From contig NZ_AWNK01000013.1 in assembly GCF_000469585.1 (NCBI RefSeq), forward strand, positions 1 to 41,772: a DNA stretch of 41,772 nucleotides, written 5' to 3'. The notes below the pieces were generated by a model. It saw only the letters and a program-made list of their open reading frames with translations, was not told where the DNA came from and did no database searches. The translations under genes and the position numbers were made by a program. Source of the DNA: Chrysiogenes arsenatis DSM 11915. Lineage in GTDB: Bacteria; Chrysiogenota; Chrysiogenetes; Chrysiogenales; Chrysiogenaceae. Position 1 is the stretch's first letter; each line of letters starts with the position of its first letter. Below, one piece after another: positions 660-40,057 of the stretch.

Positions 660-705
660 GGTGGTCAAAATTCGGTGATCACAGGTGGTCAATTTTCGGT
701 TGTCA
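660..705. repeat. Right-end repeats of the IS21 element
   Basis: Two near-identical 22-base units lie in direct orientation, at 660-681 and 684-705. Both start GGTGGTCAA, continue ATTCGG or TTTCGG, and end TCA. IS21 elements carry such multiple terminal repeats as transposase binding sites. The outermost CA at 704-705 fits the conserved IS21 terminus. Direct flanking duplication cannot be tested because the left end is absent. Confidence 0.7.
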
Positions 706-7995: not shown

Positions 7996-8889
7996 TTAAT
8001 ATTTTCCGGTTAACGCCAAAAACGTATCCTCTAAACTGATCTCATAAGGCTGAATCGTTATTTCCCCTTGGGCATAACGGTTTAGCCTTTTCGTTGCTTC
8101 TCGCGCGTCCAAGGTGCAAATCACCTGATAGCCACTGGCTGTATGTGAGATATCTTGTACTGTGGGGTCGCATTCGATTTCTGCCAACGCTATTTTTCCC
8201 TGAATATAATAGCCGTACCATCCATCGTGCAGCTCCGTCAGCGGTGCATGTTTCACCACGCGTCCCTTATCGATAACCAGCGCTTCATCAATAAAACGCT
8301 CCAAGTCCTGCATAATATGGGAGGTTATCAGAACAGTTTTCTTCCGTTCGGTAACATACCGGTTGAGATACTCAAGGAAAAGGCGGCGATACCCCGCGTC
8401 CAGCCCCATCGAAAAGTCGTCAAGAATCAGCAGGTCGGCGTTCTGCGCCATCAACACCGCGAGCGCAATCTGCGAACGTTGTCCGCATGACATATGGCCT
8501 ATTTTGTGCCGCAGCGACAAGCCGAGTTTGGCGACAAGCGTGTGGTAGGTCTCGCTTTCCCATTTCGGATAGAAGTGACGGTAGAAGGATTCGGTCTGTT
8601 GAATATCAAAAAATTCGTACGATAAATGCCCTTCATGTAGCAGCGCAATCCGCTGTTTTGTTGCTGGTAACAGCGCATGTGCCGGCTCGCCAAAGAGCGT
8701 ACATTGACCGTGTTGCGGTTGTAAAAACCCCATGATGATATTGATGGCGGTGGTTTTCCCCGCGCCGTTTTTGCCAAGCAGACCAAAAATTTTCCCCGCC
8801 GTTACGGTAAAGGAAATATCGTGCAGCACGGTTTCTTGCTCGTAGGCATGGCAGAGATGGTCGGCGCGAATGATGACCTCAGAAGTCAT
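7996..8889 (-). CDS. ABC transporter ATP-binding protein with atypical signature
   Basis: A 297-residue cytoplasmic nucleotide-binding subunit. Walker A is GLLGKNGAGKTTA near residue 36; the Q-loop region is ALLHEGHLSYEFFDIQ; the ABC signature reads MSCGQRSQIALA instead of LSGGQ; Walker B is LLILDDFSMGLD with Asp where the catalytic Glu normally sits; the H-loop is LITSHIM. The fold resembles the drug/lipid-export group (CcmA/YtrB-like), with about 80 residues of C-terminal extension. No permease gene lies beside it. Its ATG overlaps the end of the TonB-receptor gene by 11 bases, so the two are translationally linked. The altered signature and Walker B suggest slow hydrolysis; the substrate is unknown. 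Confidence 0.85.
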   Translation of the reverse strand: MTSEVIIRADHLCHAYEQETVLHDISFTVTAGKIFGLLGKNGAGKTTAINIIMGFLQPQHGQCTLFGEPAHALLPATKQRIALLHEGHLSYEFFDIQQTESFYRHFYPKWESETYHTLVAKLGLSLRHKIGHMSCGQRSQIALAVLMAQNADLLILDDFSMGLDAGYRRLFLEYLNRYVTERKKTVLITSHIMQDLERFIDEALVIDKGRVVKHAPLTELHDGWYGYYIQGKIALAEIECDPTVQDISHTASGYQVICTLDAREATKRLNRYAQGEITIQPYEISLEDTFLALTGKY

Positions 8890-11386: not shown

Positions 11387-14300
11387 TCGTATTTTCCTGG
11401 GTCAGCGTACAAAGGGGTTGGATCATTCGCGTCAGGTTTGCCGTCGCCATCAGAGTCGTCGTCCAGCTCCAAGCCGCAGGCGGCAATATGGGCAGGTGTT
11501 GCCCACGGCAGGAAAAAGTCCGGTTTGCCATCTTTGTCGGTGTCGACGAATGCCACCGCACAAGAAGGGAAGGCGTCGCGCGTCGTCACAGCATGTGCCA
11601 GTTGCTTCAGGGCGCGGTTGCGTTCTGTGGACATGGAGAAGATCTCCCACGCCGCACGGTATCCCGCTTCAATCAAGTCGAGCTCTGCAAAGGCCTGAGC
11701 GATGTTTTCGTACGCGGCTATTTTTACGCTTTCCAGAACAATCGTTTGGGCATAATCGTAGGCCAGTGCAAGCAGTTCCTGACTTTTTTCGGCCTGCGGC
11801 GTGTGTTGGTACAAGTTGGCGATATGGCGCAAGGCGACAACTTGGTTGTTGTCGCTGTTCATGGCGCGAGCACTTTCGGTAGCGCGGGAAAGAAGGGTAT
11901 CGGTAATGTGGAGTGTGTCACCGACGAGCAGATGATCATTGGCCTGCCCAATAATGAAGTTGGCAGCGTACAAAGGCTCTAGTCCTTCGATGGTCTGATG
12001 CGCTTTGCTGAAGAGTGTTCTGGCGCGTGCCGTATGATTCAGGGCAACGTGCTGCGCTCCCACGGCAGCATACGCTTTGGAGCGGGCAAATGAATGAGGC
12101 AGCGTGTCGAGATACGCTTCGGCACTGTCAAGTATGGCATCGGACTTTTCTGGTCGTCCGATCAGTCGATATTCTTTGGCGAGTTTTAAATACCCTTTTT
12201 CGAGGTAACGGTTGCTCAATAAGTGACTAAATTCAGTGATTAGTTCGTGAGGCGTAAGTTCTGTCTGCTGCCGCACTTGTTCGATTTGTGTTGCAAGGTA
12301 ATCTAAGGCGGCTTCAGCGAGGGCAAAGTCACCCGACAGGCGGGCGTGGGATGCGATCCCTTGGGCGGTACTGTTAAAGTAGCTCCACGAACTGACGATT
12401 TCATCAAAGGTGAGTTGTCCTTTGATCGTGTCGTCGTTGTAGAACGTTTGCGCCGACTGGAATCCTTCGGTACTCCCTTTCGCAATAAGTATCCCTCGGA
12501 TGGCGGCGGCGCGTCCGGCAGGGGTCAGGAGTGTCAGTATGTCAGTGGCGCTCGTTGTGTCGCCTGCCCAGTAGAGATGACCGGCCAACAGGCCATAGCC
12601 TGTCGCCCCTTGCCATGTGGTGCCGGTAGTGGCATTGCGCCACACTTCCAGTTGGGTGAACGCATCGAGAATCTTTTGTTTCATCGTGTTTCTATCGGCA
12701 CCTTGTTCGGCCAAGGTGCGGTAAATAGCGACCGCCTGCACGGTCGATGAGATATGCGAGTTGTAGTTCGGCCCGGCGAGCGGGGAGAGTTGGTGAATCA
12801 GGGTGAAGTAGTAGTCAAGCGCTTGGAGCGCTTCTGGGAGTGCCCCTTCTGTTGCCAGTTGAGCCGCAAAATCGCGCTGCCCGTTGGCAATGCGTGCCCA
12901 GCGTGTCCATTTTGCAGTTTGATTAAAGCTTGGCGTATTGTCGATGGCGTGCCAAAGCTGATTGCGCAGGGCATGCGCTTCGTCAAGCCGAGCAATCTGG
13001 CTGTAGTTTTTAGAAAGCTCGATTAGCTCGCTGATGAGGAAATCCGTCAATGTCCCTTCGGCCCAGAAGAGCGATTCTGCTTCTTGAAGGTAGGTGAGCG
13101 CGGCAGCACTATCGGAAAGGCGAAGTGCCTGGCCGATAAGACGATACCCTTTGGCACGGTTGGCGCTCCCGATAATAGAGCTTCTGACGAGATTTTCTGC
13201 CCGCTGGTGTTGCCCTGCTGTGGCGTACGACGCGACAATCGACAAATAAATATCGTCATTGACACTATCATCCCGCACGCGGTTAATCAGCGTGCGAGCG
13301 ACCATGTTGCGGTCAAGATCGGACGAAAAATAGTACGCGGCGCGGCGGGCATTATCATCGCCGGGCATGAGATCGGGATGAACCGGAAAGCGGCTCAGAT
13401 GAATACGCCCTTCGCTGGCAAGGAGTCGAATCGCCTCGCGCTCGGTAGCGAAGGTGTTTGACGATGATAATGCCGTGAGTTGAGCTGCAAACACCTCATC
13501 GTTCAGGTAGCTATTGTAGTCAGCAAAGTACGTGGAATCGAGCCCATTGACATTGAACGTGATGTAGGTGATGTACCGTGCCAGCTGCATCACGCGAAAG
13601 GTATCGACGGGGATGTCGATACCGGTGGCAATGGTTTCGATGGCGTCGTAGAGTCGACTGACATTGGCGATATAGGCCGGAGCAAGTTCTGCGGCGGGAT
13701 AATTATCCAGTAACCCTTCGAGTGCGTTGTGCAGCAACTGCAGTGTATTGGTACGGGCGATTTGCTTCATCGTCGCGGAACCGCTGAACTGCGTGACGTT
13801 TTTGAGCTGTTCCGCCGTTGCGTACGCTCGTGCGACCACGGCTGCGTCAATTCCCTGGAGCGCCGCAGCAACTAAGGTTCCGTTGCTCTCTAAAAGTATT
13901 TGCGTCCGTAAGGCGTTGCCAAGATCGCTCAGAATTTCCGTCCCTCCCCCTTGCGCACTCTGCTCACTGGCAATACGTACCAGAAGATAGGCCACTTTCA
14001 ACAGTTCACTGGAGTGGGTCGGGTCGCTAAGGGGATCAACATGCGCGGGCAAACCCAGAACGTGGCGCGTACGTGCTTGCAGGGTAGGGATATCGGTAAT
14101 GGTTTCTGAAAGGCTCTGCATAATGGTGGTCACGGGAGAAATAATGACGGTATCAAGACTGCCAGCATATGGTCGCAGTGGGCTTTTCAGCGTAATCGAT
14201 TCGAAAGAGGTGCCATATACGGTATCTACTCCACCGAGGGTTGAGAGATGGTAGGCTGACATGTCAATAGTGCGCGGAAAGATGAACGTGAAGCGACCAG

Positions 14301-20825: not shown

Positions 20826-22061
20826 TTATTCGCCAATCAGTGTGACGTCGCATTTGCTGGGTAAAAAGAGGGTAAATTCTGCGCCACCTTCCACATTTGC
20901 GGCCTGAATGGTGCCACACATATTGCGCTCGATAATCATTTTCGACATGTATAAACCAATGCCCGTCCCCTTCGCGGCCGACTTCGTGGTGAAATATGGG
21001 TTAAAAATGCGTGGGAGCACCGCTTCGGGAATCCCGCCGCCATTATCGCGAATGGTCATAATCGTATCGTTGTCGTGGCTTTGGCAGCGGATAGTGACCA
21101 GCCGTTCGCCGGCTTGTTTTTCTTCCAGTACATCACGTGAGTTATTCAAGATGTTCAGCAAGACTTGCATGAATTCCTGAGGATAGCCGTAGATAAAGCA
21201 GCCGGAATCACACTGGGCATCAATGGTAATATGGTGCATCTCAAATACGGGTTGTATGAGCGACAGCACCCGTTCGATACTATGCTTCAGTAAGAAGACG
21301 GTTTTTTCTTTTTCCGGCTTAAAAAAATTGGCGAAGTCGTCAATGGTTTTTGACATATAGCTCAGCTGGTTCGTAATTTTTTCGAGCGCGGCATCCAAGA
21401 AGGCATTCGTCACGGTTTTAGAATGAAAATTATCGACGACATCTTCGACCGTTAATCCGACAATATTCAGCGGTTGCCGCCATTGGTGGGCAATATTGCC
21501 AATCATTTCGCCCATTTCTGCCAATCGACTTTGGTGGATCACCATCTGATCTTTTTCCCAATTTTTCGCGACTTCCTGCTGCACCCGTTCTTCGAGTTGT
21601 TGGTTGATCTCGCGTAACTCCTGTTCGTGCTCAAGGCGCAGCACCATTTCGCAGTGCATTGCAAGGAGATTTCTGACCCGCGCCAGCAATTCAATAGCAT
21701 TGATGATGGGCTTGCGCACGTAGTCGCTGGCACCAGCTTCAAAACCGCTGCGAAGCGTATCAAGGTCGGTTCTGGCAGTTGCCATGATCACCGGAATATC
21801 GCGCCACCGTTCATCCCCTTTAATCATCCGGCAGGCGGTAATACCATCAACCTCCGGCATCATGACATCGAGAATGATCAGGCTGACGGAATGCTTTTCA
21901 AGGATTTTCACCCCTTCGGCAAACGTAGAGGCTTTCTGAAGATTGGTATATCCTTGTTCATCAAGGAACGCTTCAATCAGGTCGGCATTGTCGAGATTAT
22001 CGTCGATAATCAGAATGCAAAGATCGCTCAGGTGGGCGCTGTTCGGTGCAATGGAACTCAT
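20826..22061 (-). CDS. Response-regulator-histidine kinase (REC-HisKA-HATPase)
   Basis: 411 residues, with the same layout as the protein at 15659: receiver (Asp65 in LILDVMMPEVDG), coiled coil 140-175, kinase core with His192 in AHQWRQPLN, then N box NILNNSRDVL, G1 DNGGGIPE and G2 GTGIGLYMSK. No membrane segment. ATGA overlap with the stop of the large MBL-fold kinase couples their translation, so its receiver is a likely partner of that kinase. The two receiver-kinases look like paralogues. Confidence 0.92.
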   Translation of the reverse strand: MSSIAPNSAHLSDLCILIIDDNLDNADLIEAFLDEQGYTNLQKASTFAEGVKILEKHSVSLIILDVMMPEVDGITACRMIKGDERWRDIPVIMATARTDLDTLRSGFEAGASDYVRKPIINAIELLARVRNLLAMHCEMVLRLEHEQELREINQQLEERVQQEVAKNWEKDQMVIHQSRLAEMGEMIGNIAHQWRQPLNIVGLTVEDVVDNFHSKTVTNAFLDAALEKITNQLSYMSKTIDDFANFFKPEKEKTVFLLKHSIERVLSLIQPVFEMHHITIDAQCDSGCFIYGYPQEFMQVLLNILNNSRDVLEEKQAGERLVTIRCQSHDNDTIMTIRDNGGGIPEAVLPRIFNPYFTTKSAAKGTGIGLYMSKMIIERNMCGTIQAANVEGGAEFTLFLPSKCDVTLIGE

Positions 22062-25000
22062 TCCTTCTTCCTCGCTAAGTAATTCCTGGCAAATTGTTTG
22101 ATAAGGTTTTCCGCCGCAGGCCCTTTTTGCAGTACCCTCGCGCCAGCCAACCCGAGCACTTCAAGGTCGTTACGGGTCAAATCTTTCGCGGTCACGACGA
22201 CCACGGGGAGTGTCAAAAACCGTGCATCTGCGCGCAGACGAATCAGGAAGTCAAACCCGTTCATCTCTGGCATCATCAGGTCTAAATAGATCACATCGGG
22301 CATAAAACCGCCAGCGAGGATTGCGAGTGCTTCGGTGCCGCTGGCCGCTTGACGAATATCTTCGGATTGCGCACTCAGCATATCGACCATAAGTTCGCGC
22401 ATCTCTTTTTCGTCATCAACAATCAGCACGGAACCGAACGATCCCTGAATGTAACGCCCAAACGAGCGGAGGATATCTTCGCGCGAAAGGGGTTTTGACA
22501 GGCAATCAAGCGCGCCCAGTGCTTGGCCGCGCGAGTTGTCGGCAATATTGCTGACGACAACCACCGGAATAGCAGCGGTTTCAGGGTCTTTCTTCAGTCG
22601 TCGCAACACTTCCCAGCCATTCAAGCCAGGCATCATGATGTCGAGTGTAATGAGCGACGGGCGCAGCTCGCGCGCCATTTTCAGCCCTTTTTCGCCAGTT
22701 TCGGCGGTAAAAATTGTGAGCGAAAACTCTTGCAGGTAGTCACGGATCAACTCGCGGCTATCTTCCGTGTCGTCAATAATGAGCACGGAATCGACGCGGA
22801 AGTCGTCGTGGCTGATAGTTGTTTCGCGCGATACGTGCTCCTGTGGCAGGCTTGATTGCTTTGTTTCCCCGTCCACGTGCGTGGGAGCCGTCGGAAGCGC
22901 TACGGTAAAGCGTGAACCACGGCCAACTTCCGACGCCACGCGAATCGTGCCACCGAGCAGTTCAGCAAGATTACGCGAAATAGTCAGGCCAAGCCCCGTA
23001 CCGCCATAGCGGCGCGTAGTGCTGCCATCACCCTGACGGAACGGCTGGAAAATCGTTTCGTGTTTTTCGGCGGGGATCCCGATGCCATTATCTTCAATAG
23101 TCATCAAAATATACCCTTCGGTGTTACGCGAAATATGGCAGACGGTTTTGCCATGCCCCGGCTCAACAAATTTGACCGCGTTGCCGACAAGGTTGAGTAA
23201 AATTTGTCGCAATTTATGCTCATCAGTCACAATTGTCGTCCCTTTCGGGAGCTGATTGTTGATTGAGAGCGTTATCCCTTTGGCGTTTGCCTGCGATGCA
23301 ACCATATCAAGGGTCTGCTGCATCATCAATTCGGGATCAAGGGTCGCAAGGTGGACTTCCATCTTGCCGGCTTCAATTTTTGACAAGTCAAGAATATCAT
23401 TGATCAAGTTAAGGAGATGATGGCCGTTACGGTTGATTTTTTCCATTTGGGAAAGCTCTTTTGCATCAAGGTGACCCTGACGGTTTTTGCCGAGAATATT
23501 CGAAAAACCGATGATGGAGTTGAGTGGCGTCCGCAGTTCGTGCGACATATTGGCGAGGAATTCGCTCTTCATGCGGTCGGCTTCGCGCAGCTGCATATTT
23601 GTCTCTTCGAGCTTCATGGATTGACGTTGGACAATGGCGTAGTTCATCGCGTTATTGAGCGAATGCGTGAGCGCGCTCATGTAGCCATCAAGATACTCCT
23701 GATCGCGCAGCGCGCCGACGCTGGCGAGCAAAATAACGCCAAGACGACTTTCCTGAAATATCAGGGGGATAGCGTGGATGTGGCGCATCGTAAGCGGCAT
23801 CAGGCCAGTATCGATCACGGGAAATGCGGCCGGATCAATCCCTTCGATGCTCAGTGGCCGCCCCGCTTCGAGCGCCTGCAACGGCAAGCCGCGGCCAGAA
23901 GGTTCAAACAAGGCGTGTTGCAGTACCTGTTTATCGTAAGCGTGGCGATTAAGCGCTTTGAGGCGGCCTTCTTCCCAGATATAGAAAATGCCCAGTTGCG
24001 CCGCCGTGAGTTCGACGAGTTGCTTGATGGCCTTTCCCGCCAGATACGCTACGTCAACGGAATTAAGGCTTGAAAGGTAGCGGCTGAACATGGTGAGTTG
24101 CCGTTGGTCGGCAAGCAAGACGGAGTTTGCCTGTTCGAGAGCATCGGTTTTCTGGCGCACCCGTTCTTCAAGATTTTCGTTCAGCCGTTGCAGATCGCGC
24201 GTTTTTTGCTCCACAATCCCTTCGAGTTGCAACTGATGGTGTTCCAGCTGTCGTTTTGTGCGATTTAGCTCATCAGTTTGTTCACGGAGTTTTTCCACCA
24301 TATCGAGTAGTTCGGCGGAGTATTTTTCTTCAATATACAGCCCGCACTCCATCCCTTTCATTCGCGTAATCAGCGGCGCAATCAGTGGGCGGCGGATAAT
24401 GGAGCCGTGTTGGGGCGCAATCAGGTCGATATCCAGCGCTTCAATTTTACGCAAAGAGTAATTCAGGATGTCGCGGCTGGGCATGTAGGCCGAATGGAAG
24501 CTGACGATTTTTTCAAAGTACGTTTCGTCAGCGTAAAAGCTCCATGAAATATCGGCACCGCCGAAGAGATCACTCGAAAAGAGCACTTTCTCCCGTGTGG
24601 CGTAACTGACAAACGCGCCCGGTGAATGGCAATATGGGGTGGTGTGGAAGGTGAGTTCGAGACCACCAGCGTTAATGCCAAAACCTTCTTTATCGATGCA
24701 ATAGTAGGGCGAGCGAATGCCGTAGTGCTTCAGGAGTACCGTCATACGGCTATGGGTAATGATGTGCAGATCTTCGCGACCGATCAATGTTTCAAGCTCC
24801 GGCACGAGCGAGCAGAGATCGGGATCTTGGTGGTGCAATATGATGAACTGAATGTGATCAAGTGGAACGAGTTGCTGCACTTTACGCAGCAGTGCTTCGC
24901 GCTCAAGGACACTGCCCGGATCGACCAGAATGGAGTGCGTGCCATTGACGATCAAATAGGGATGGCACTGGAAAGGATCGCCCGGCAGGTATTCGCCCAC

Positions 25001-25072
25001 CCAGTAAATGCCGTTTGCGATTTCCACTGATCCGGAAAAATCGGGTTGATGCGAGGTGTCAAAGGTACGCAT
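22058..25072 (-). CDS. Metallo-beta-lactamase-fold (ODP/flavodiiron-like) GAF hybrid histidine kinase with two receivers
   Basis: 1004 residues, no membrane segment. Residues 15-230 are an MBL-fold domain like that of flavodiiron and oxygen-binding di-iron proteins, with candidate ligands HHQDPD (80-85), His149 in CHSPG, Asp168 in SSDLFGG and His222 in PQHGS. The second ligand position has Gln82 where flavodiiron enzymes have Glu. Then come a coiled coil (255-325), GAF (about 326-480), HisKA with His511 in SHELRTPLN, HATPase with GTGLGLTI (691-698), and two receivers (Asp811 in TLDIMMPGLNG, Asp931 in YLDLMMPEMNG). The likely role is sensing oxygen, peroxide or iron redox state in the cytoplasm and feeding the phosphorelay; the ligand is inferred. 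Confidence 0.9.
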   Translation of the reverse strand: MRTFDTSHQPDFSGSVEIANGIYWVGEYLPGDPFQCHPYLIVNGTHSILVDPGSVLEREALLRKVQQLVPLDHIQFIILHHQDPDLCSLVPELETLIGREDLHIITHSRMTVLLKHYGIRSPYYCIDKEGFGINAGGLELTFHTTPYCHSPGAFVSYATREKVLFSSDLFGGADISWSFYADETYFEKIVSFHSAYMPSRDILNYSLRKIEALDIDLIAPQHGSIIRRPLIAPLITRMKGMECGLYIEEKYSAELLDMVEKLREQTDELNRTKRQLEHHQLQLEGIVEQKTRDLQRLNENLEERVRQKTDALEQANSVLLADQRQLTMFSRYLSSLNSVDVAYLAGKAIKQLVELTAAQLGIFYIWEEGRLKALNRHAYDKQVLQHALFEPSGRGLPLQALEAGRPLSIEGIDPAAFPVIDTGLMPLTMRHIHAIPLIFQESRLGVILLASVGALRDQEYLDGYMSALTHSLNNAMNYAIVQRQSMKLEETNMQLREADRMKSEFLANMSHELRTPLNSIIGFSNILGKNRQGHLDAKELSQMEKINRNGHHLLNLINDILDLSKIEAGKMEVHLATLDPELMMQQTLDMVASQANAKGITLSINNQLPKGTTIVTDEHKLRQILLNLVGNAVKFVEPGHGKTVCHISRNTEGYILMTIEDNGIGIPAEKHETIFQPFRQGDGSTTRRYGGTGLGLTISRNLAELLGGTIRVASEVGRGSRFTVALPTAPTHVDGETKQSSLPQEHVSRETTISHDDFRVDSVLIIDDTEDSRELIRDYLQEFSLTIFTAETGEKGLKMARELRPSLITLDIMMPGLNGWEVLRRLKKDPETAAIPVVVVSNIADNSRGQALGALDCLSKPLSREDILRSFGRYIQGSFGSVLIVDDEKEMRELMVDMLSAQSEDIRQAASGTEALAILAGGFMPDVIYLDLMMPEMNGFDFLIRLRADARFLTLPVVVVTAKDLTRNDLEVLGLAGARVLQKGPAAENLIKQFARNYLARKKE

Positions 25073-29443: not shown

Positions 29444-30670
29444 ATGACATTCCGGCAACGCATGCTGCCCTGTACTCTGGCCGCCGCTCTAATGGCCTCC
29501 ACTGCATCGGGAGCCAGCATTCATGGGCACCTGAGCAGTGTCGTAGAATACTATGACGAGCCTGATAATAAGACCGCTCTCCCCGTCTACCAGTATTTAT
29601 TACTTCATGCCAACGATATTGCAGACAAAGGTTTCACCTTCCGTTTCTATGGCCGCGCCGCTACTGACCTGCACGATAACGATGAAGTGGGCAGTCACCT
29701 CTACTATGCCTATCTTGAAAAGCGTAACATGGCCGATAAAGTAGACTTCAAACTTGGCCGCCACTTTGTAGCCAGCACCGCTGGCGCTGCTATGATGGAT
29801 GGGCTCTCTGTCGATGTTCGCAACCTTGGTCCAGTCAGCATTGGTTTTTTTGGCGGTGGAGACGTCAAGTACTACGAAGATTATAAAGCTGGCGATATGA
29901 TAGCTGGGGCGAAAATTTCTACCGATGTGTGGAGTGACAGGCTTCATCTCGGCTTGTCGACTGTTCGTAAGTACGAAGAGAGCGAACTGAGCCATGAACT
30001 CTACGGCTTTAATGCTTACCTGAACTTTGACGATAAAGCCGAACTCTATACCGAAACGCAGTACGACTACCTCAGCGACACCATCAGCTACTTCCTTGCT
30101 GGAGCCAACTATCACGCTGCAGAAAAATGGACGCTGCGTGGCGAGTACCTCTACTCCCTTCCTGTTTTTTCCTCTAAGTCGCTCTATTCAGTATTTGCCG
30201 TTTCTGAATACAAAGAAATCATGACCAAAGCCACTTACCGCATTAACCTCGGCCTGAGCGCATTTGCCAAGTACACACATGAAATGTACGAGGATTTTTC
30301 GAATGCGAATGTTTACGAAGCTGGGCTGGAGCAAGTTCGTCTGAATAAGTTTTCTGGCTATTTTGCCGGTGTATGGCGCTCCCAAGATGAAGGACAAGAC
30401 TTGAAAGGGGTGCGTGGCCGTGCGGCATGGCTCTTTACCCCAACCTTTCAGGCGGGAGTTGGTGCGAGCGTTGACGTTATGGAACGCTGGCTGGAAATTT
30501 ATGAAGGGAGCGCGTACGGCGTGGATGAAACCACTTCGCACCGCATTTGGGTAGACAGCACGCTTTACCTTGGAAAGCGCGTAACGATGGAATTTAAGAT
30601 AGAGCAGGCTAAAAGCGCCCTGTGGGATAAGTTCCACCTTGGCCGCGTACGCTTGAACTACTACTTCTAA
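29444..30670 (+). CDS. Outer-membrane beta-barrel of a porin-cytochrome conduit
   Basis: 408 residues: signal peptide ending near TASGA, then amphipathic strands rich in Tyr and Phe throughout, finishing GRVRLNYYF with the terminal Phe required for barrel insertion. No haem motifs. Repeated FRFYGRA-, KLGRHFV-, LYTETQYDYL- and RGEYLYS-like strands are typical of multi-strand porins. Its place directly before two decahaem genes (15-base gaps) matches porin-cytochrome complexes, in which a barrel lets a periplasmic and a surface cytochrome touch through the outer membrane. It is not clearly MtrB or a known Geobacter barrel by eye. Shine-Dalgarno AAGGAGG. Confidence 0.8.
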   Translation: MTFRQRMLPCTLAAALMASTASGASIHGHLSSVVEYYDEPDNKTALPVYQYLLLHANDIADKGFTFRFYGRAATDLHDNDEVGSHLYYAYLEKRNMADKVDFKLGRHFVASTAGAAMMDGLSVDVRNLGPVSIGFFGGGDVKYYEDYKAGDMIAGAKISTDVWSDRLHLGLSTVRKYEESELSHELYGFNAYLNFDDKAELYTETQYDYLSDTISYFLAGANYHAAEKWTLRGEYLYSLPVFSSKSLYSVFAVSEYKEIMTKATYRINLGLSAFAKYTHEMYEDFSNANVYEAGLEQVRLNKFSGYFAGVWRSQDEGQDLKGVRGRAAWLFTPTFQAGVGASVDVMERWLEIYEGSAYGVDETTSHRIWVDSTLYLGKRVTMEFKIEQAKSALWDKFHLGRVRLNYYF

Positions 30671-30685
30671 GCAAAAGGAAGCGAC

Positions 30686-31555
30686 ATGAACCGATTTACC
30701 TTTGCCATATTTCTCTTATTTGGTTGCCTTCTCATGGGGGCGATAACCTATTCCATCGCGCAAACAGCGGTGGTTACCTATAACCACGACCGCCATGTCA
30801 ACTACATGGGTGGCATGGAATGCACCACGTGCCACGGCACAACGCTGGAAATTCTTTCACCGCCGCGCAGTGCGTGTGTGCAGTGTCATGGCAATGCCTT
30901 CAATGAAACCGTCATTATCCCTGCGCTGAAAACCCACGGCCCCGCTTAGGCGCTGACACACGGCGCACATGCCAAAAGTAAGCGGAACGACTGTATGCAG
31001 TGCCACGACCAGCCGCGTACGCGCAACATTCCCGACTGCCTGAGTTGCCATATAGCCGACAAAGCTGACGAAATGGGGAAACTTGGCAATAACTTCAGCA
31101 ACATCCATACCTCGGAATTCAGCATTACTCACCCCATAGCAGCGCGTACCAATCCGAACCTCTGTGCCAACTGTCACCGTGAAAACAGATTCTGCACCGA
31201 CTGTCACGACAAATTCCGCCGTAACGACCTTGGGATGGAGTCGCACCGCCGTAACTTCAGTGCGCTCCAGACTGGGCCATTGGCACAAAGTCACGATCAA
31301 TTCACTGAGGCTGATTGCAAGACCTGCCATGTGAATTCCATTATCCCGACTCACGAATGGTCAACTGCGCACGCGCGCGAAGCACGCAAGAACTTAGCGA
31401 CGTGCCAGGCTTGCCATCCGAGCGGAGACACCTGTGTGAAATGCCACAGCGCACGGAGCGGACTTGGCATTAGCCCACATCCGAAAAACTGGAATAAAAT
31501 TAAAGGTCGCCTCGAAAGAGCCAGCGGTGGCGCAACCTGTAGTCGCTGCCACTAA
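30686..31555 (+). CDS. Periplasmic-type decahaem cytochrome c, interrupted by an in-frame TAG
   Basis: A single frame of 290 codons with TAG at codon 88 (30947-30949). The N-terminus is a signal peptide or anchor (FAIFLLFGCLLMGAITYSIA). Ten CXXCH motifs are seen: two before the TAG (CTTCH, CVQCH) and eight after (CMQCH, CLSCH, CANCH, CTDCH, CKTCH, CQACH, CVKCH, CSRCH), the last being the C-terminus. The context THGPA-TAG-ALTHG fits the common THGPxW pattern of related cytochromes, so TGG (Trp) is expected. The downstream part has no start signal or signal peptide, so it cannot be a separate functional cytochrome. A likely periplasmic electron carrier inside the barrel. Readthrough, mutation or base error are all possible. 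Confidence 0.75.
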
Positions 31556-31569
31556 AACCTGAAGGAGTA

Positions 31570-34122
31570 ATGAAGAATATGAAACGGAAAACTCTGTTAC
31601 AGAGCACCATGGTTGGTGTTTTAAGCGCACTCCTACTGAGCGGTTGTGGTGGTGGAGGCAAGGGGAGCGGTGGAACTGCACCAGTTGGTCCCATCAGGAC
31701 ACCTGCTGGAGTAGTGATATCAGTTGATAATGCTACTGCAACACTTGATACGAACGATGAATTTATGCAGACATTTATGGATGCTGCCGATCCGCAGCCT
31801 GGTATTGCGACAACCATTACCTTGCAGAGTAACCCTGTGGCGGCCAGCGTTGCGGCTGTGTCGACCACAAACCCTTTTGCTGATATTGCCGCAAACGAAA
31901 TCAGCTTTACCCTCGCACGGTTGGTAACGCACGCTGATGGAACAAAGCAATAGCGCAGTTATGTGAGCCGCACCGAAACTGCTGATACGAATGATTTTCC
32001 CAATGGCCTAAGCAGTGCACTGCAAGCAACGGCTGTTGCAGGTACAGCGGGGGCGCTGAGTGTTGAAAACAAAGGTGGTAATGCGGTTGCCATCAAATTC
32101 CAATTCCCCAAAACACTGAGTGAATATGACAACGTTGCATTTGATAAATATGCTGTTCATCGTATAGGCATTCAGATTAACACCAATGCTACCAAGGGGA
32201 GAACAAATGCGATCAATATCGCGTATGACTTTGTTCCTGCCGATCTCAGCACTCCAGCAGACAGTGCACGGCGCGAAGTAGCCAAAACTGCAACGTGCCT
32301 TGAGTGCCATGAAAAAGGGAGCTTCCGCATTCACGGTGGTAACCGCGTAGATGTGGCGTATTGCGTGACGTGTCACAACCCCTATACCACCGACGCCCAA
32401 AGCGGCAACAGCCTTGATATGACGCAGATGATTCACAAAATTCACATGGGGCATAAACTGCCGAGCCTCGTGGAGGACAGTAAAGAATATGCCATTTACG
32501 GCTACAATATGAGTAAGCACACCTACGCCACATTCGATTCACCTGAATGGGGAGGCGTGAAGTATGCCGGAGCTGAACCTGCTGGTGTCGTGTATCCGGC
32601 GTGGCCATATGGACATGGAACGGCACAGCCTATGAATTGTGCCAAGTGCCACCGTGGCGACACTGTCGAAGCTAACGACACGGGTGTTACTGCTGCGGGT
32701 AATAACTGGAAAACCAATCCCAGTTATCGCGCCTGCTTTAGCTGTCATGATGGGGAGTCAAGTCAGCAAAAGCCATTTGTCGCTGGTAGCACAACATTTC
32801 TCCATGGAAACTTTACTGAAGGCACTGCTGGTGGTGCCTGCATTGGTTGTCACAATGCGACAACAACCGATGTAAAGCTCAACATCACTACCGCTCACGC
32901 AACCCTTGGGAAAACACCACTGAACCCTACGCAAGGCTATAAAACCTCTGCTGGAGTGCAGCGCGACTTGTACTCGTTCGAGTATCGTATCCACGGCGTA
33001 ACCACAGAATCAAATGACTCTGTACCCAAAATCCATTTTAGTATTCTCATCAACCGTGGCGATACAACCGACACGATGGACTTATTTGCCAATAATGCTG
33101 AACTAACTGGCGGCCCCACGTTCTTGGTAGCGTATGCCCAGCCAGATGCGTTAGCAACAACACCGGCTGATTGGAATCAGCAGGGCAAAAGACAGGGGCA
33201 ACCGCAAACGGTAGCGCTCAGTAGTCTTGTGGCTGGTGCTGCTGGTGACACGCTCGAGCGTCAGGCAGATGGCACCTATATCGCAACCCTGAACTCCGCT
33301 CCGTTCCCCGCTGGCGCGACCATGAAAGCGATTGCCCTGCAAGGGTATTTCCAGCAGACAGTAGGCAGCGAGTCTGTCCGACTCGCTACCCGTTCCGTGG
33401 TGCATTTTGTTGACGGAATCACCGAGCGCCGCCGCGTTGTGGACGAAACCAAGTGTTTGAGCTGTCACGACACGATCGCTTTTCACGGCGGTAACCGTGT
33501 GGATAACCCGCAAGTATGTGTGATTTGCCACAACCCAGCACTCACCAGCAGCGGACACACTTTGCCGTTACTGGCAACCGATTCGTCGGATCGTGTGGGT
33601 ATGTTCCGCACTGCCAGTGACCGCTTGCGTGCTGAAACCAGCAATAACTTCAAAGAGCTCATCCACGGTATTCACGCCGGAAATCTGCTTGGAGTCCGCA
33701 ACCAGAACAACAACCCAACGCCATACGATTTCAACCACAACTTATTTGGAAATAGTGGGGTGGCGCAAATATTTGGCACCGATTGTACCAAGTGCCATAT
33801 CACGGAAACGTACTACCCACGCGAAGGTCAGGGAGTATTGGCCACTGTCAATAACGTCCGTGCCGACACTACGGACGAAGACAGCTCCGACTCCTTGCGT
33901 GCCGCAATGGCAAGCATTACGAACAGTGCCGACCGTATGACGACCGCTTATGGTGCCAGTTGTGCTACCTGCCACATTTCCAGTGCAGCAAAAACGCATA
34001 TGCAGCAGTATGGAGCACAATTTGCTGTACGGCGCGATGCGCTGAACCCCGCACTGGAGTCGTGTGCTCGTTGCCACGGCAAAGACGAGTATATGGATGT
34101 GCGCAGCGCACACCGCTTTTAG
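31570..34122 (+). CDS. OmcA/MtrC-family decahaem outer-membrane lipoprotein cytochrome, interrupted by an in-frame TAG
   Basis: One frame of 851 codons with TAG at codon 128 (31951-31953). Lipobox LLLSGC, then a GGGG linker. The order is an Ig-like N-terminal domain, five CXXCH (CLECH, CVTCH, CAKCH, CFSCH, CIGCH), a second beta domain, then five more (CLSCH, CVICH, CTKCH, CATCH, CARCH). HGGNRVD motifs and the MIHKIHMG segment are family hallmarks. The break reads GTKQ-TAG-RSYVSRTET; family members have Trp before SY(I/V)xR, so TGG is expected. All ten haems lie after the TAG, so termination would give no cytochrome. Start ATG 31570, or 31579 with better spacing. Probable terminal reductase facing outside the cell. 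Confidence 0.8.
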
Positions 34123-34334
34123 GCGGAAATTTCAGTAACAACGGGGTCTGCTTCCGGCAGATCCCGCTGATATACCTTGTAATTACCCTCATCAGGTATG
34201 GAGGTGCAACAGACCAGAGAGTATTGCTTGGGGTTTATGATGAGGCACTCGTGTGTGTTCATCATCGAGGAAGAGAAGGTATTTTAGTAACCACTCTGCC
34301 CTGTTTCAGGGAGAGTAAGAACCAAGGAGGATTC
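34123..34334. other. Spacer between the second and third decahaem genes, with two stem-loops
   Basis: GGGGTCTGC-TTCCG-GCAGATCCC (about 34143-34165) forms a stem with one G-T pair right after the cytochrome stop, without a T-run. A second possible stem uses ATGATGA and TCATCAT around 34239-34267. The first may stabilise or partly terminate the upstream transcript. A long open frame passes through from 33960 but is just the third cytochrome frame running upstream. Confidence 0.4.
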
Positions 34335-37067
34335 ATGAGGACGAAACACAAGAACGCCGTCACCGCCTGCAAAGGAGCGCTTGCCGCTCTTGGAGCAGCA
34401 GCTCTGTTAGTAGGGTCGGCTCAAGCAGCAACGCAGTCAATTACTCTGAACAACGGTTGGACGCTTGCAGGGTCAGCATTGAGCAATGTAAATGTTGCGT
34501 CAACGTTTACCGATGTAAAAACTGTTTGGAAATGGGAAAATGGTCAGTGGAAGGCATTTTCACCACAGACGACAGTTCAGTCGCAGCTAACGGCTGCTGG
34601 CATTGGCGGGTTAACTACCCTGAATGCCGGTGATGGTTTTTGGGTAAATGCGGCATTGAGCAGCAGCACCACGAAAACACTTACTGGAGATACCGTAGAG
34701 TCACCGAACCTTTCAGTCAAGGCTGGCTGGAACCTCGTTTCTCCTATCACAAGTGAGTCAACCACGTTAAGTAGCAAATTTAGCGATGCGAATAGCTTTG
34801 CTTCTGCTTGGACGTGGAAAGGGACGTTCTGGGAAGCCTACTCACCAGACGCGAACATGCAGGCACGGATGAAAGCGGCGCTGATTCCGGTTGCCAGCAG
34901 TGTTGCTCAGGGGCAAGGATTTTGGGTAAATGCGAAGACCGCTAAAGGGGTTGCGTTTGACGGCACAACAACTCCGCCAAGTCTCCCCGTGTTTATCTCT
35001 GGCGTGACCATGAACGCAGAGAATAAATTAGTCGCTACCTTCCAAGTTATGGATCCGATATACCTTTCTGCCAATGGCAGCTTAGCGTTTGGCATGCTGC
35101 GTTTGGCTCGGGTTGGGGCTGATGACAATATGACAGTGCTTGGTAATGCTTCTAATACTATCACCCCTAAGGGTAATGGTCTTTATGAGGTAGTAGTCAA
35201 TTCACCTGTGATTGTAGAAACTGCCGAAGGATTGGTACATCGCCTTGCGTTCCGCGTCAATGCTGATAGCGCTCTAGGACGTGAAGGGATTGATGGCTGG
35301 TATGATGTCGTTCCCGCTACTGGCGTAGCAACTCCAAGCCGCAACGTGGCTGAAACAGCAAGCTGCTATCAGTGCCACTCCAGATCAACCGGTGGCATTT
35401 ATCACTCAAACCGCTTCTCGGTTGAAACTTGTGTAACGTGTCACTCTGAGCCGGCAAGAAGGAATAACAGTGCTGCTATAAGTGCCTATGGCAGCTTTAA
35501 TGTGGTAAACAGTACTGCTGCGGGTCAAAACCGCACTCTTACGGAAATTGCTCACGCATTCCACAAAGATCTTGCTGGGCATAAAGTTGAAAGAGTACGT
35601 GAGTGTACGTCGTGCCACAGCTCAACTGGCGGCAGTGCGGACAACTGGAAAACGAAGCCAAGCTTCTTTGCCTGCTTCTCGTGTCACGACGTGAGTGCTA
35701 AGTTTGCTGATGGTCAGCAGCTTGCTACTTCGCACCGTCCAAGCGCAGGAGTTTCTGGTTGTGTAACATGTCACACTGGCACCACTATGCCTGATGTTGA
35801 GATTAGTAAAGTCCACCTTCCTGGCGCCAGAGGCGACGTAAGTGCTCTGCCAAATTACACGTACACCATTCACAGTGTAACTGACAGTACTGACGGCAGT
35901 GCACTGGTGAAATTCAGTGTCAAGAACAGCCTGACGCAGGCTCCTCTTGACGTAAGAACTACCAAACCTAATACCAGCTTGCAAGTGTACCTCGTGAGCA
36001 GCTTACCTGACACTGCCGCTGGTGTAACCCAGCCACGTGACTGGAACAATGCTCACCGTCCGAATGCACAGCCAAACGTTAACCTTACGATTGATAACGC
36101 TACAGATAGCCCTGATAGACTGACTTTTGACTCCGCGGATGGTACTTTCACAGCAATATTCCCAGCGGGTTCCTACCCTGCTGACGCCTACATGAAGGGT
36201 GCTTTCCTTCAGGGCTATGTTGGTAGTGTTGCGACTGTGGGTGGCGTGAGCTACATTCCAGCTCTTTCACAAGAGCGCCCGATTTCTGCCGTTGGCTTTG
36301 TTGGCACCGGCAATAGTGCGATCACGCATCCGCAAATTGCTACAGCGGCTAAGTGTCAAGCGTGCCACGCTGACTTTGGTATGCACGGTTCTGGATCGCG
36401 TATCAGTAACCCGAATATGTGTATTGGTTGCCACAACCCGAACCTGACCAGCAGTGGTAACACATTAAAGAGCGGTACTGCAGCGGCGGTTGCTATCGTG
36501 AATGGCAACAACCAAGCTCGCCTTCAGGCTGAAACCAGTAACAACCTGAAAGAACTGGCTCACGGTATTCACTCTGGGTACTTCACTGGGGAGAAGAAAT
36601 TCATCCGTGGTGGCAACGTAACCACTGGCGCAAGCAGCGGACAGAGCAACGAGTTTGAATTTGCTATGGATGTTGTTGACCTTGTCATCGGTTCCGACTG
36701 TACCAAGTGTCATGCTGGAACTTCTTACTATCCACGCGCTACCGGTGCATTGCCAACGACTTCTAAGATTCGTAGCACTGACTCTACCGAAGCGGAACTC
36801 CTCGCTATGGACACGTCAGATCTTGCCGATGCAATGATTGCGGCGCGTAACACTGTAGGGGCAAATCCACAGGATTACGTTATCGGTCACATGGCAGCAA
36901 GCTGTAACCAGTGTCACTCTGATGCTACAGCTATTGCACACATGAACCAACATGGTGGGCAGATTGAAGTTCGCCGTAATACTTACAATCCAGCAGCTCA
37001 GGCTTGCCTCCTGTGTCACGGTGCAGGCAAAGTTGCTGACATTAAAGCGGTTCACAAACTGCCGTAA
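34335..37067 (+). CDS. Third decahaem cytochrome c with two N-terminal GW-type repeats
   Basis: 910 residues from ATG 34335, with AAGGAGG four bases before it. The signal peptide is cleaved after AQA, with no lipobox, unlike the preceding cytochrome. Two repeats of about 75 residues follow (NNGWTLAGSALS ending GDGFWVNA, and KAGWNLVSPITS ending GQGFWVNAK). Then a beta domain and ten CXXCH motifs: CYQCH, CVTCH, CTSCH, CFSCH, CVTCH, CQACH, CIGCH, CTKCH, CNQCH, CLLCH. The haem part resembles OmcA/MtrC in the order and the NLKELAHGIHSG motif. No internal stop. It may be a secreted or surface-attached cytochrome, with the repeats acting in binding. Confidence 0.85.
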   Translation: MRTKHKNAVTACKGALAALGAAALLVGSAQAATQSITLNNGWTLAGSALSNVNVASTFTDVKTVWKWENGQWKAFSPQTTVQSQLTAAGIGGLTTLNAGDGFWVNAALSSSTTKTLTGDTVESPNLSVKAGWNLVSPITSESTTLSSKFSDANSFASAWTWKGTFWEAYSPDANMQARMKAALIPVASSVAQGQGFWVNAKTAKGVAFDGTTTPPSLPVFISGVTMNAENKLVATFQVMDPIYLSANGSLAFGMLRLARVGADDNMTVLGNASNTITPKGNGLYEVVVNSPVIVETAEGLVHRLAFRVNADSALGREGIDGWYDVVPATGVATPSRNVAETASCYQCHSRSTGGIYHSNRFSVETCVTCHSEPARRNNSAAISAYGSFNVVNSTAAGQNRTLTEIAHAFHKDLAGHKVERVRECTSCHSSTGGSADNWKTKPSFFACFSCHDVSAKFADGQQLATSHRPSAGVSGCVTCHTGTTMPDVEISKVHLPGARGDVSALPNYTYTIHSVTDSTDGSALVKFSVKNSLTQAPLDVRTTKPNTSLQVYLVSSLPDTAAGVTQPRDWNNAHRPNAQPNVNLTIDNATDSPDRLTFDSADGTFTAIFPAGSYPADAYMKGAFLQGYVGSVATVGGVSYIPALSQERPISAVGFVGTGNSAITHPQIATAAKCQACHADFGMHGSGSRISNPNMCIGCHNPNLTSSGNTLKSGTAAAVAIVNGNNQARLQAETSNNLKELAHGIHSGYFTGEKKFIRGGNVTTGASSGQSNEFEFAMDVVDLVIGSDCTKCHAGTSYYPRATGALPTTSKIRSTDSTEAELLAMDTSDLADAMIAARNTVGANPQDYVIGHMAASCNQCHSDATAIAHMNQHGGQIEVRRNTYNPAAQACLLCHGAGKVADIKAVHKLP

Positions 37068-37172: not shown

Positions 37173-37202
37173 GCTTCCCTCAGAGGGGGGAAGCCTTTTT
37201 TG
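37173..37202 (+). terminator. Rho-independent terminator
   Basis: GCTTCCC (from 37173) pairs with GGGGAAGC, followed by CTTTTTTG. It ends the cytochrome transcript about 45 bases before the next gene, so the downstream lipoprotein probably has its own or only read-through transcription. Confidence 0.75.
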
Positions 37203-37245
37203 TTTACCGCCTGAGTTGAAATGTTCAAACAACCAAGGAGATTCT

Positions 37246-38772
37246 ATGAGTAGGAAATTTCTTGTATTTATGACGGCACTGGCGCTTGGTGGCGCCACGC
37301 TGGTTACCGGCTGCGGTGGCGGCGGCGGTGGGTCAACTCCGCCTGCATCGTCGTCGGTTTCCGTCTCCGGAAATGTTTCCGATGGATATATTTCGGGCGC
37401 AACTATCAAGGTGAACGGCGTTCCCCAACCTACCCTTACTGGTGCTACGGGAAATTACACCGTTGATGTGACGGGTAGTTCCCAGATTACTGCTGAAGGT
37501 GGAACTGACGTTGCGAACAATAAGCCATTTACTGGAATTTTGATCGCAGACTTCGTGAGTGGTGTCGATAGTCCAGAAGGACTCTATGTGACACCGCTTA
37601 CTACCTTGTTGCACTTTGCGCCGACGGTTTTTGATGCAGGCGCAATCACTAAAGCTCAGGTAAAAAAGCTTGATATTGGTAATCCGAATGCTACCGGGAA
37701 TAATATTCAAGTTGCTCGGAAAGCTGCGCTTGCTGTGCAGAATATTGTTGCTACGTTAAAGTCGGCTACCGGTAACAATCTTGGCTCGGATACCGCCGAA
37801 AGAGTGCGGGTAGCATTCTCTGCAGTGGGTGCGCATTTAGCATCTAATCCACTCGTAAACGACAGTGGTGAGACAGTTGTTTTTGATAGTGCAGATGTCC
37901 GCGAGATTGCTGGAAATGCAAAAGGGCTGGTTGATGCTGCACAAGCAAATCTTGTAGAAGCACAGATCAATGCTGCATCGAGTATTATTGAAACTCTGAC
38001 GAATGAGATTCAATTACTCGATAGTGCTCTTTCCGCTGCGGCATTGCAGAATGCTATTGAGATAACGCGCGCTGCTTATCAGGCTCAGCTTGACAGTATC
38101 GAACAGACGCCGTCGGTGGACAGTGCTGAAGAGATTGCTACTGTAATTGCGGAGCAAGTTCAAGCGAAGGCAGCCGTCCTTGAGACGAACCGTGCACGTG
38201 CAGCGGCGTCGCTTGCTTACTATTCGGCACAGCCCGTTAATGGTGATACGCTGGAGGTTGACGTTGCCAGTGTACGCGATTCTATTGAGGCGCTGATTGT
38301 TGCAAATGATACAAAAGAAACTAGCGAGTTCGATGCTATTTACGGCCAAGCTAACCGTCTCCCTCGCTTAGTTTCTGCTTTGCCAGCACAGACGTTAGTG
38401 GTTGGTACTGCAATGACACCGCTTCAGCTTGGATCGTTTTTCAAAGATAACGGAACGCTGACGTATGCTGTTACGAGTGGTTCACTCCCGGCAGGTGTTG
38501 CTTTGGCTTCGGGCGTTATCAGTGGTACGGCGACGGCAGCGTCGGCGGTTAGTACTGTGGTAATTACCGCGACTGACACCAGTGATAAAGCTGTTTCCGG
38601 TAGTGTTACCTTCACGGTAAGCGCTACGCCTGTTGACCCTGATCCGATTGATCCGGCTGATTGTGCGGTTGATTATCCGCCAGTGCAAGGATTGCCAAGT
38701 GATTTCTATCCTCCTAAAGTAGTCGAAGCATGTTATCCTGATAACCTGTTCCCGCCTACTCCTGGATTATAA
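37246..38772 (+). CDS. Lipoprotein with regulatory-like and Ig-like domains
   Basis: 508 residues. The lipobox ends VTGC followed by GGGGGG. Residues about 30-130 form a carboxypeptidase-regulatory-like fold (VSVSGNVSDGYISGATIKV, ending YVTPLTTLLHF) also found in the giant lipoprotein at 11383. The middle is helical and Ala-rich. Residues about 385-475 resemble a putative-Ig (He_PIG) domain (ALPAQTLVVG, TYAVTSGSLPAGVAL, VISGTATAAS). A Pro- and Cys-containing tail follows. ATG 37246 has AAGGAG upstream; an upstream in-frame ATG at 37216 lacks one. Location after the electron-transfer genes hints at a surface adhesin or scaffold role; not proven. Confidence 0.75.
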   Translation: MSRKFLVFMTALALGGATLVTGCGGGGGGSTPPASSSVSVSGNVSDGYISGATIKVNGVPQPTLTGATGNYTVDVTGSSQITAEGGTDVANNKPFTGILIADFVSGVDSPEGLYVTPLTTLLHFAPTVFDAGAITKAQVKKLDIGNPNATGNNIQVARKAALAVQNIVATLKSATGNNLGSDTAERVRVAFSAVGAHLASNPLVNDSGETVVFDSADVREIAGNAKGLVDAAQANLVEAQINAASSIIETLTNEIQLLDSALSAAALQNAIEITRAAYQAQLDSIEQTPSVDSAEEIATVIAEQVQAKAAVLETNRARAAASLAYYSAQPVNGDTLEVDVASVRDSIEALIVANDTKETSEFDAIYGQANRLPRLVSALPAQTLVVGTAMTPLQLGSFFKDNGTLTYAVTSGSLPAGVALASGVISGTATAASAVSTVVITATDTSDKAVSGSVTFTVSATPVDPDPIDPADCAVDYPPVQGLPSDFYPPKVVEACYPDNLFPPTPGL

Positions 38773-38831: not shown

Positions 38832-39043
38832 CTCGAACTTTTGTCATTTCGACGATCTCTACGAGGAGAAATCTGGATCTCTCACTTCGTTCGAGATGAC
38901 GGGGGGTATGTTCGATGTGACGGGGGGGATATGTTCGATACGAGTGGTGAGAGAAGCTGTGCTTTTTGGACGCAAGAGGGTGCGCTGACAAGATGCACTC
39001 CTTTCTTGCAAAGCTCACTCCCTTCGGCCTATACTCGATACCT
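38832..39043. repeat. Intergenic stretch with dispersed repeat pieces
   Basis: Contains GATCTCTCACTTCGTTCGAGATGAC at 38876-38900, the exact reverse complement of 27168-27192, preceded by a related GTCATTTCGA-ATCTCTACGAGG segment. A short near-duplication follows (GACGGGGGG, T or A, ATGTTCGAT, twice, about 38898-38940). No gene is supported before 39044. Confidence 0.7.
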
Positions 39044-40057
39044 ATGAGCCAAGCAAACAATACTAACCAGCACCAAGAACACGACAGTGGATATAAGCAG
39101 ATCTTTAGCCACCCATGGCTGGTGCGCGATCTGCTGCTTGGCTTTGTGAAATACGACTGGGTACAAGAACTCGATTACGAGACCCTTGAACCTTACACCG
39201 AAACTCGTATTACCGACGACTACCGAGGCAAGTATAACGACTGTGTTTGGCGCTTGCGTTTTCGTGGTGAATGGCTCTATCTCTATCTATTCCTTGAATT
39301 TCAGTCGAGTGAAGACTATTTTATGAGCGTTCGGTTTCTAACATATGTAGGACTGCTCTACCAAGACATTATTAAAAGTGAAAAACTAGGTAAAGGAGAT
39401 AAGTTGCCACCGATTATGCCGCTACTGATTTATAACGGCACCAAGGCGTGGCAGGCACCAACCGAAGTTAGTAGGTTAATTGATCCCGTACACCCCGTTC
39501 TGCGGAGGTTTACGCCACAATTGCAATATTTTTTACTTGACGAAGGACGGGTGCCTAGCAATGAACTAGAAACTGGTGCAACGAACTTGGTTGCCGAATT
39601 GATAAAACTCGAAATGACGCACCCTAAAGAACTAAGATTGCAGGTGTCGGCTCTAGCCCATGTGATAGCAGACCCAAAGTATGCAGAGATTCGTCGTACT
39701 TTTGCCATTTGGCTAAAACGCTTAATCCGTCGCCGCTACCCCGATATGGAGGTACCAGAAATCGACGAGATAACAGAGGAGAGTAGTGCCATGTTAGCAG
39801 AAAGACTCGATATGTGGTTGAAAGAGAAGAGGGATGAGGGTGTAAGAATTGGTGAAATGCGTGGGTTGCTTGCAGGTATTCAGCGCATCCGCAGCCTAAA
39901 GTACCAAACGATTCGTAAGCTCGTTCAGCGTAGTGCGCCAATCAATGATATTGCTGACTTGGTCGATATGCCTGCCGAAAAAGTTAAACAGGTGATCGAC
40001 GCTGGCGAAGCTGGTATTGATCTGATCGAAGTGGATGAGAGTGAGCTTAGAGGATAA
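39044..40057 (+). CDS. Rpn-family recombination-promoting nuclease / transposase-like protein
   Basis: 337 residues. The N-terminal domain has the PD-(D/E)XK-type core of the Rpn/YhgA-like family: DSGYKQIFSHPWLVRDLL, DDYRGKYNDCVWRLRF, then YLFLEFQSS with the E-x-Q motif, and LPPIMPLLIYNG. The C-terminal part is helical and charged. In E. coli, Rpn proteins promote RecA-independent recombination and cut DNA. An open frame extends to 38966, but ATG 39044 fits the family start. The gene is flanked by repeats and toxin-antitoxin genes, so it belongs to an accessory segment. Confidence 0.85.
   Translation: MSQANNTNQHQEHDSGYKQIFSHPWLVRDLLLGFVKYDWVQELDYETLEPYTETRITDDYRGKYNDCVWRLRFRGEWLYLYLFLEFQSSEDYFMSVRFLTYVGLLYQDIIKSEKLGKGDKLPPIMPLLIYNGTKAWQAPTEVSRLIDPVHPVLRRFTPQLQYFLLDEGRVPSNELETGATNLVAELIKLEMTHPKELRLQVSALAHVIADPKYAEIRRTFAIWLKRLIRRRYPDMEVPEIDEITEESSAMLAERLDMWLKEKRDEGVRIGEMRGLLAGIQRIRSLKYQTIRKLVQRSAPINDIADLVDMPAEKVKQVIDAGEAGIDLIEVDESELRG

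What the first reader, a model, noticed from the sequence alone, without database searches (positions are those of the whole stretch)
29444..37067. Porin-cytochrome conduit with an added third, non-lipoprotein decahaem protein
The order is barrel, periplasmic decahaem and OmcA/MtrC lipoprotein decahaem with 15-base gaps, then a separate 910-residue decahaem. This is 30 CXXCH haem sites in under 7 kb. The barrel does not look like a standard MtrB, and the locus differs in order from Shewanella mtrCAB. It could be a distinct lineage of extracellular electron-transfer complex.
Basis: partly seen in the sequence, partly recalled or inferred. Interest (0 to 1): 0.65.

Follow-up and report, generated by a model that had tools for sequence, protein, structure and literature searches.

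The report
Outer-membrane electron conduit with stop codons
The genes encode a known type of protein wire that carries electrons through a bacterium's outer membrane, but both conduit cytochrome genes contain an early stop codon, so the wire is probably broken, and the extra cytochrome beside it looks like a separate unit.

Summary
Without read-through, 12 of 30 CXXCH sites remain in exported products. The genome has release factor 1, no CUA-anticodon tRNA among 34 tRNA hits, no PylS, and no in-frame stop in 121 domain matches. TAG also ends the lipoprotein gene itself. I read this as a probably inactivated porin-cytochrome (Pcc) conduit, apparently of Chrysiogenes arsenatis. Its barrel and periplasmic decahaem are orthologous to a published Pcc cluster of Desulfurispirillum indicum. 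The outer cytochrome has been swapped for an OmcA/MtrC-family protein: 0 of 5 outer cytochromes from related loci hit that family. The 'third decahaem' with the lipoprotein after it is a separate two-gene module that recurs on another contig without a barrel. Interest is modest. A pair of ambers read through on purpose would be striking, but nothing found supports it.

The parts
29444..30670 (+). porin-like outer-membrane protein (408 aa), intact
   Evidence: orthologue of D. indicum barrel, 46%; A2 profile finds matches in 52 of 384 genomes, the three source genomes included; ends RLNYYF; no Pfam/NCBIfam hit; fold prediction failed
30686..31555 (+). periplasmic decahaem c-type cytochrome gene (289 codons read through), interrupted by TAG; predicted product 87 aa with 2 CXXCH
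   Evidence: orthologue in D. indicum 56% without a stop
30947..30949 (+). in-frame TAG, codon 88
   Evidence: aligned residue is Trp in 6 and Phe in 3 of 9 homologues
31570..34122 (+). OmcA/MtrC-family decahaem lipoprotein gene (850 codons read through), interrupted by TAG; predicted product 127 aa with no CXXCH; lipobox LLSGC
   Evidence: TIGR03507 314 bits versus cut-off 209.3 when read through
31951..31953 (+). in-frame TAG, codon 128
   Evidence: aligned residue Tyr in 4 of 5 other rows (Asn in the window's third decahaem; weakly aligned region) and Trp in OmcA 4lmh
34335..37067 (+). separate decahaem protein (910 aa), no lipobox by eye, intact, with an N-terminal repeat domain; belongs with the next gene rather than with the conduit
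   Evidence: TIGR03507 195.6 bits, below the cut-off; paralogue on contig C1 shares the N-terminal domain, 43-45%
37173..37194 (+). terminator-like stem-loop with T run between the decahaem and Ig-lipoprotein genes; a similar stem lies at the same place in the C1 pair
   Evidence: C1 stem read by eye
37216..38772 (+). putative lipoprotein with a He_PIG Ig domain, second gene of the decahaem/Ig module
   Evidence: PF05345; C1 homologue 32% over 505 columns, also with PF05345

Best explanation
The locus is a Pcc-type trans-outer-membrane electron conduit (porin, inserted periplasmic decahaem, outer decahaem lipoprotein) whose outer cytochrome has been exchanged for an OmcA/MtrC-family protein. 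In the sequenced strain both cytochrome genes carry one premature amber codon, so translation yields an 87-residue stub with two haem sites and a 127-residue haem-free lipoprotein stub, and the wire is most likely dead. Had it been intact, electrons would pass from periplasmic carriers through the decahaem inside the barrel to the surface cytochrome and on to an extracellular acceptor. The adjacent 910-residue decahaem is an independent surface-cytochrome module (decahaem plus Ig lipoprotein) and may still work. Shown: gene order, stops, homology, haem-motif counts. Inferred: conduit function, loss of function, independence of the third decahaem.
For: In-frame TAGs. TAG acts as a stop here: 15 of 127 ORFs of 150+ aa end in TAG (the window and 8 stretches), and the lipoprotein gene itself ends in TAG two residues past the end of the TIGR03507 match (profile 672/672, residue 848). 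RF1 542 bits, over its cut-off. No CTA anticodon at any of the 34 tRNA hits. PylS 18.8 bits versus cut-off 178. 0 of 48 ABC_tran and 0 of 73 response-regulator matches hold a stop. 9 of 9 homologous periplasmic cytochromes read open through the amber position, with Trp (6) or Phe (3) there. The genome has one barrel match and one match to the periplasmic decahaem, so no back-up was found. Conduit identity: a barrel homologue beside a CXXCH cytochrome on the same strand in 9 of 9 loci; D. indicum pcc cluster in print. Physiology agrees: C. arsenatis is reported to grow on arsenate, nitrate and nitrite and not to use selenate (PMC3828317 whole text; PMC3368425 passages).
Against: Both genes are otherwise clean: no frameshift, all 20 CXXCH kept, the barrel intact. 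That fits very recent mutation, laboratory passage, or a read-through that keeps the genes under selection. Sequencing or assembly error cannot be excluded from here, although the published DSM 11915 draft reports 12x Sanger and 120x Illumina, if this is that assembly. A suppressor tRNA in an assembly gap is not excluded: no Ile tRNA was among the 34 hits, so the tRNA set is incomplete.
Confidence: 0.76

Rival explanations
1. The ambers are sequencing or assembly errors, or fixed only in one culture line; the wild strain has a working hybrid Pcc / OmcA-MtrC conduit.
For: No other lesion in about 3.4 kb; all haem motifs retained. The exact assembly behind the window is inferred, not known.
Against: Two independent substitutions would both have to be wrong; the published draft has 12x Sanger and 120x Illumina.
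Confidence: 0.15
2. The ambers are read through on purpose (suppression, or mRNA editing that changes the codon), giving low or conditional conduit expression.
For: Both stops are TAG and both fall at mostly aromatic positions; the frames downstream stay intact.
Against: No CUA tRNA found, no PylS, RF1 present, no in-frame stops in 121 other domain matches. Both stops being TAG is expected about a third of the time among transition-made nonsense changes (my arithmetic from the codon counts).
Confidence: 0.04
3. The third decahaem is a true further part of the conduit, perhaps replacing the broken lipoprotein at the surface.
For: Adjacent, same strand, paralogous to the lipoprotein cytochrome (31-39%).
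Against: 212-base gap, no lipobox by eye, and a paralogous pair with its own Ig lipoprotein elsewhere with no barrel in the fetched 19.9 kb. The periplasmic decahaem needed to feed it is broken too.
Confidence: 0.1

Closest known systems
Pcc gene cluster of Desulfurispirillum indicum S5 (named Selin_2480-2482 by Shi et al. 2014; equation with locus L066 is my inference)
   Same: same order barrel > 10-CXXCH cytochrome > multihaem lipoprotein; barrel 46% and decahaem 56% identical
   Different: its outer lipoprotein has 15 CXXCH and no OmcA/MtrC hit; its frames are open; no relative of the third decahaem was found in that genome at E<=1e-15
MtrCAB of Shewanella
   Same: outer cytochrome belongs to the OmcA/MtrC family TIGR03507; three-part layout (recalled)
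   Different: periplasmic cytochrome does not hit the MtrA/DmsE model; barrel has no Pfam hit, hence none to an MtrB model; gene order differs (mtrCAB order recalled)
ExtI and OmbB-OmaB-OmcB conduits of Geobacter
   Same: Pcc architecture; ExtI homologues of 35-60% are reported in D. indicum, and extI loss lowers selenite and tellurite reduction (PMC5877670 passages)
   Different: not compared directly here; which D. indicum gene that paper meant was not checked

Membership tests
Porin-cytochrome (Pcc) cluster | porin-like outer-membrane protein gene next to a periplasmic multihaem cytochrome gene | tested here: met
   gene order; homology to the D. indicum pair; same pairing in 9 of 9 loci
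Porin-cytochrome (Pcc) cluster | barrel fold of the porin-like protein | tested here: inconclusive
   single-sequence AlphaFold2 failed, pLDDT 31.5; amphipathic windows 16 versus 11.4 +/- 2.6 in shuffles, 29 of 500 reach it; no PDB relative at E<=1
Porin-cytochrome (Pcc) cluster | outer-membrane multihaem cytochrome encoded alongside | tested here: met
   lipobox and ten CXXCH in the frame, but only if codon 128 is read through
Porin-cytochrome (Pcc) cluster | open reading frames able to make the complex | tested here: not met
   TAG at codon 88 and at codon 128
MtrCAB | MtrA/DmsE-type periplasmic decahaem (TIGR03508) | tested here: not met
   no TIGR03508 hit at E<=0.01 for the 289-residue frame
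MtrCAB | MtrB-type barrel | tested here: not met
   no Pfam or NCBIfam hit at E<=0.01
OmcA/MtrC family (TIGR03507), lipoprotein | score over the curated cut-off 209.3 | tested here: met
   lipoprotein frame 314 bits read through
OmcA/MtrC family (TIGR03507), third decahaem | score over the curated cut-off 209.3 | tested here: not met
   195.6 bits: a divergent relative; its C1 paralogue reaches 216.6
TAG recoding (pyrrolysine or suppressor tRNA) | PylS or a CUA-anticodon tRNA | tested here: not met
   PylS below cut-off; no CTA anticodon at 34 of 34 tRNA hits; assembly gaps not testable

The most novel reading that the evidence does not exclude
The two ambers are a matched, functional read-through switch: both cytochromes of one conduit are made only when an amber codon is decoded or edited, so a single change in decoding would turn extracellular electron transfer on or off.
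Probability: 0.03. Interest if true: 0.85.

Novelty: new member of a known kind. Interest (0 to 1): 0.3.

Why it matters
It adds a second Chrysiogenaceae Pcc conduit and a case in which the core (barrel plus periplasmic decahaem) is kept while the outer cytochrome is exchanged for another family, which supports Pcc conduits being modular. The broken frames also warn that haem-motif counting alone over-predicts extracellular electron transfer: this strain would be scored as a carrier of a complete conduit although two of its three parts are probably not made.

Tried and rejected
Pyrrolysine or reassigned UAG: rejected on PylS, tRNA and RF1 searches. Codon-usage scan for in-frame stops between coding-like segments: not discriminating; the TAG at 31951 ranked 12th, that at 30947 was outside the 40 printed, so I used domain families instead. 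Editing hairpins around the two codons were considered by eye from the sequence only and gave no common context; not tested further. Structure prediction of the barrel failed, so no fold search was run. The only genome-contig scan used a single protein and found one weak Ignavibacteria relative, so no named relatives came from it. OmcA/MtrC relatives in the small phylum of G293: 0 of 12 genomes at E<=1e-40 (an empty answer without a positive control). Literature: searches; I saw no listing that describes a Chrysiogenes conduit or its stops, but only listings and the passages named here were seen, and PMC4245776 has 0 occurrences of 'Chrysiogen' in its main text. PMC11475568, PMC12545173, PMC12133095 and PMC13186404 were checked by term search only; each has 0 occurrences of 'Chrysiogen'.
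Full report
Identity of the source. The window is contig C11:1-41772 of a 2,825,161-base genome in 22 contigs. That is close to the published draft of Chrysiogenes arsenatis DSM 11915 (2,824,977 bp in 22 scaffolds; PMC3828317, whole text). A same-family genome (G002) has a contig of 2,928,377 bases, the length given for Desulfurispirillum indicum S5 (PMC3368425 abstract and passages).

The observation. The order barrel, decahaem, lipoprotein decahaem, decahaem is there, with gaps of 15 and 14 bases and 10 + 10 + 10 CXXCH. However, the two middle frames each contain one TAG: codon 88 of 289 (30947-30949) and codon 128 of 850 (31951-31953). If they stop translation, the products are an 87-residue stub with 2 haem sites and a 127-residue lipoprotein stub with none; with the intact third protein, 12 of 30 haem sites remain.

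Are the TAGs stops? Several lines say yes. RF1 is present and over its cut-off (542 bits). No CUA-anticodon tRNA was seen at any of the 34 tRNA hits (30 loci, three, and the one at C3:194654-194740 inside locus L058). PylS is absent (18.8 bits against a cut-off of 178). TAG ends 15 of 127 ORFs of 150 aa or more in the window plus eight 19.9-kb stretches, and it ends the lipoprotein gene itself, two residues past the end of its family profile. As a background rate, 0 of 48 ABC_tran and 0 of 73 response-regulator matches in the genome contain a stop. A codon-usage scan was also tried and did not discriminate.

What stands at those positions in relatives. With the first amber masked, nine homologous periplasmic cytochromes align there with Trp (6 of 9) or Phe (3 of 9), and all nine frames are open. 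At the second, four of five other rows have Tyr and the window's own third decahaem has Asn, in a weakly aligned region; Shewanella OmcA (4lmh) has Trp (that alignment was made with W filled in and so leans towards Trp). Both ambers thus sit at mostly aromatic positions. Among the transitions that can make a stop in these two genes, both being TAG is expected roughly one time in three (my arithmetic on the codon counts), so the coincidence is weak evidence for anything special.

What the conduit is. The barrel has no Pfam or NCBIfam match and no PDB relative at E<=1; a single-sequence fold failed (pLDDT 31.5), and an amphipathicity test was only weakly positive (29 of 500 shuffles reach the observed count). 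Homology carries the case: it is 46% identical to a D. indicum protein and 39% to one in G034, each followed at once by a ten-CXXCH cytochrome (56% and 41%). A profile of the three finds matches in 52 of 384 genomes at E<=1e-5, the three source genomes included. In the nine loci examined closely, a barrel homologue lies next to a cytochrome of 8-13 CXXCH on the same strand every time; two further fetched loci, L112 and L116, were looked at and not counted. Shi et al. 2014 (PMC4245776, passages only) list D. indicum S5 among bacteria with one pcc cluster (Selin_2480-2482), put it in their Group II, and suggest extracellular selenate and selenite reduction. L066 is very probably that cluster, though I matched it by genome and content, not by locus tag.

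What differs. The outer cytochrome of the window scores 314 bits against OmcA/MtrC (TIGR03507, cut-off 209.3, read through). The outer cytochromes of five related loci (L066, L067, L110, L111, L115) give no TIGR03507 hit at E<=0.001 (0 of 5), and the comparable proteins of L117 and L118 match the D. indicum type and not the window's at E<=1e-5. Thus the core is shared and the outer part is swapped. Among the 193 genomes, the window's own counted, only four hold a match to the lipoprotein at E<=1e-15.

The third decahaem. It scores 195.6 bits, under the TIGR03507 cut-off, has no lipobox by eye, and starts 212 bases after the lipoprotein gene. The gene after it (37216-38772) is an Ig-domain lipoprotein. 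On contig C1 a second decahaem (ten CXXCH, 216.6 bits) with the same N-terminal repeat domain (43-45%) is followed by a homologous Ig lipoprotein with an almost identical signal peptide, again with a stem-loop between the genes (by eye), and no barrel homologue lies there (one search gives one barrel match in the whole genome). The third decahaem is therefore better seen as half of a two-gene surface module. No other genome of the 193 had a match at E<=1e-15.

Reading. Best supported: a Pcc-type conduit with a replaced outer cytochrome, probably inactivated by two recent ambers in this strain. The reported acceptors of C. arsenatis (arsenate, nitrate, nitrite; not selenate) agree with a missing extracellular route but do not prove it; I read no passage on Fe(III) tests of this species. 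Against this reading stand the cleanness of the frames and the fact that the reads could not be inspected. The boldest reading left, a decoding or editing switch shared by two genes, has no positive support beyond the matched codons.

Noticed in passing
window 22058-25072 (-): Histidine kinase with an N-terminal ODP-family beta-lactamase-fold domain, then GAF, HisKA, HATPase and receiver domains: possibly an oxygen or NO sensor kinase built on a di-iron fold (function recalled, not tested).
   Followed up: no
window 703-2115 (-): One 470-residue frame carries both a tyrosine recombinase (Phage_integrase with SAM-like N-terminus) and a Y2 transposase domain.
   Followed up: no
L071 7083-11602 (contig C1): Second decahaem plus Ig-lipoprotein pair in the same genome, beside a response-regulator gene.
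   Followed up: partly
window 34335-35230 and the L071 decahaem N-terminus: Two copies of a roughly 95-residue repeat (by eye) without a Pfam match precede the haem region.
   Followed up: no
window 38966-40057; L066 13121-13792: Rpn-family (Transposase_31) gene beside the locus in the window; a similar-looking ORF, by eye, beside the D. indicum cluster, which also has transposase-like ORFs nearby.
   Followed up: no
window 8882-11401 (-): 840-residue ORF with no Pfam hit at E<=1e-4, next to an ABC ATPase gene.
   Followed up: no
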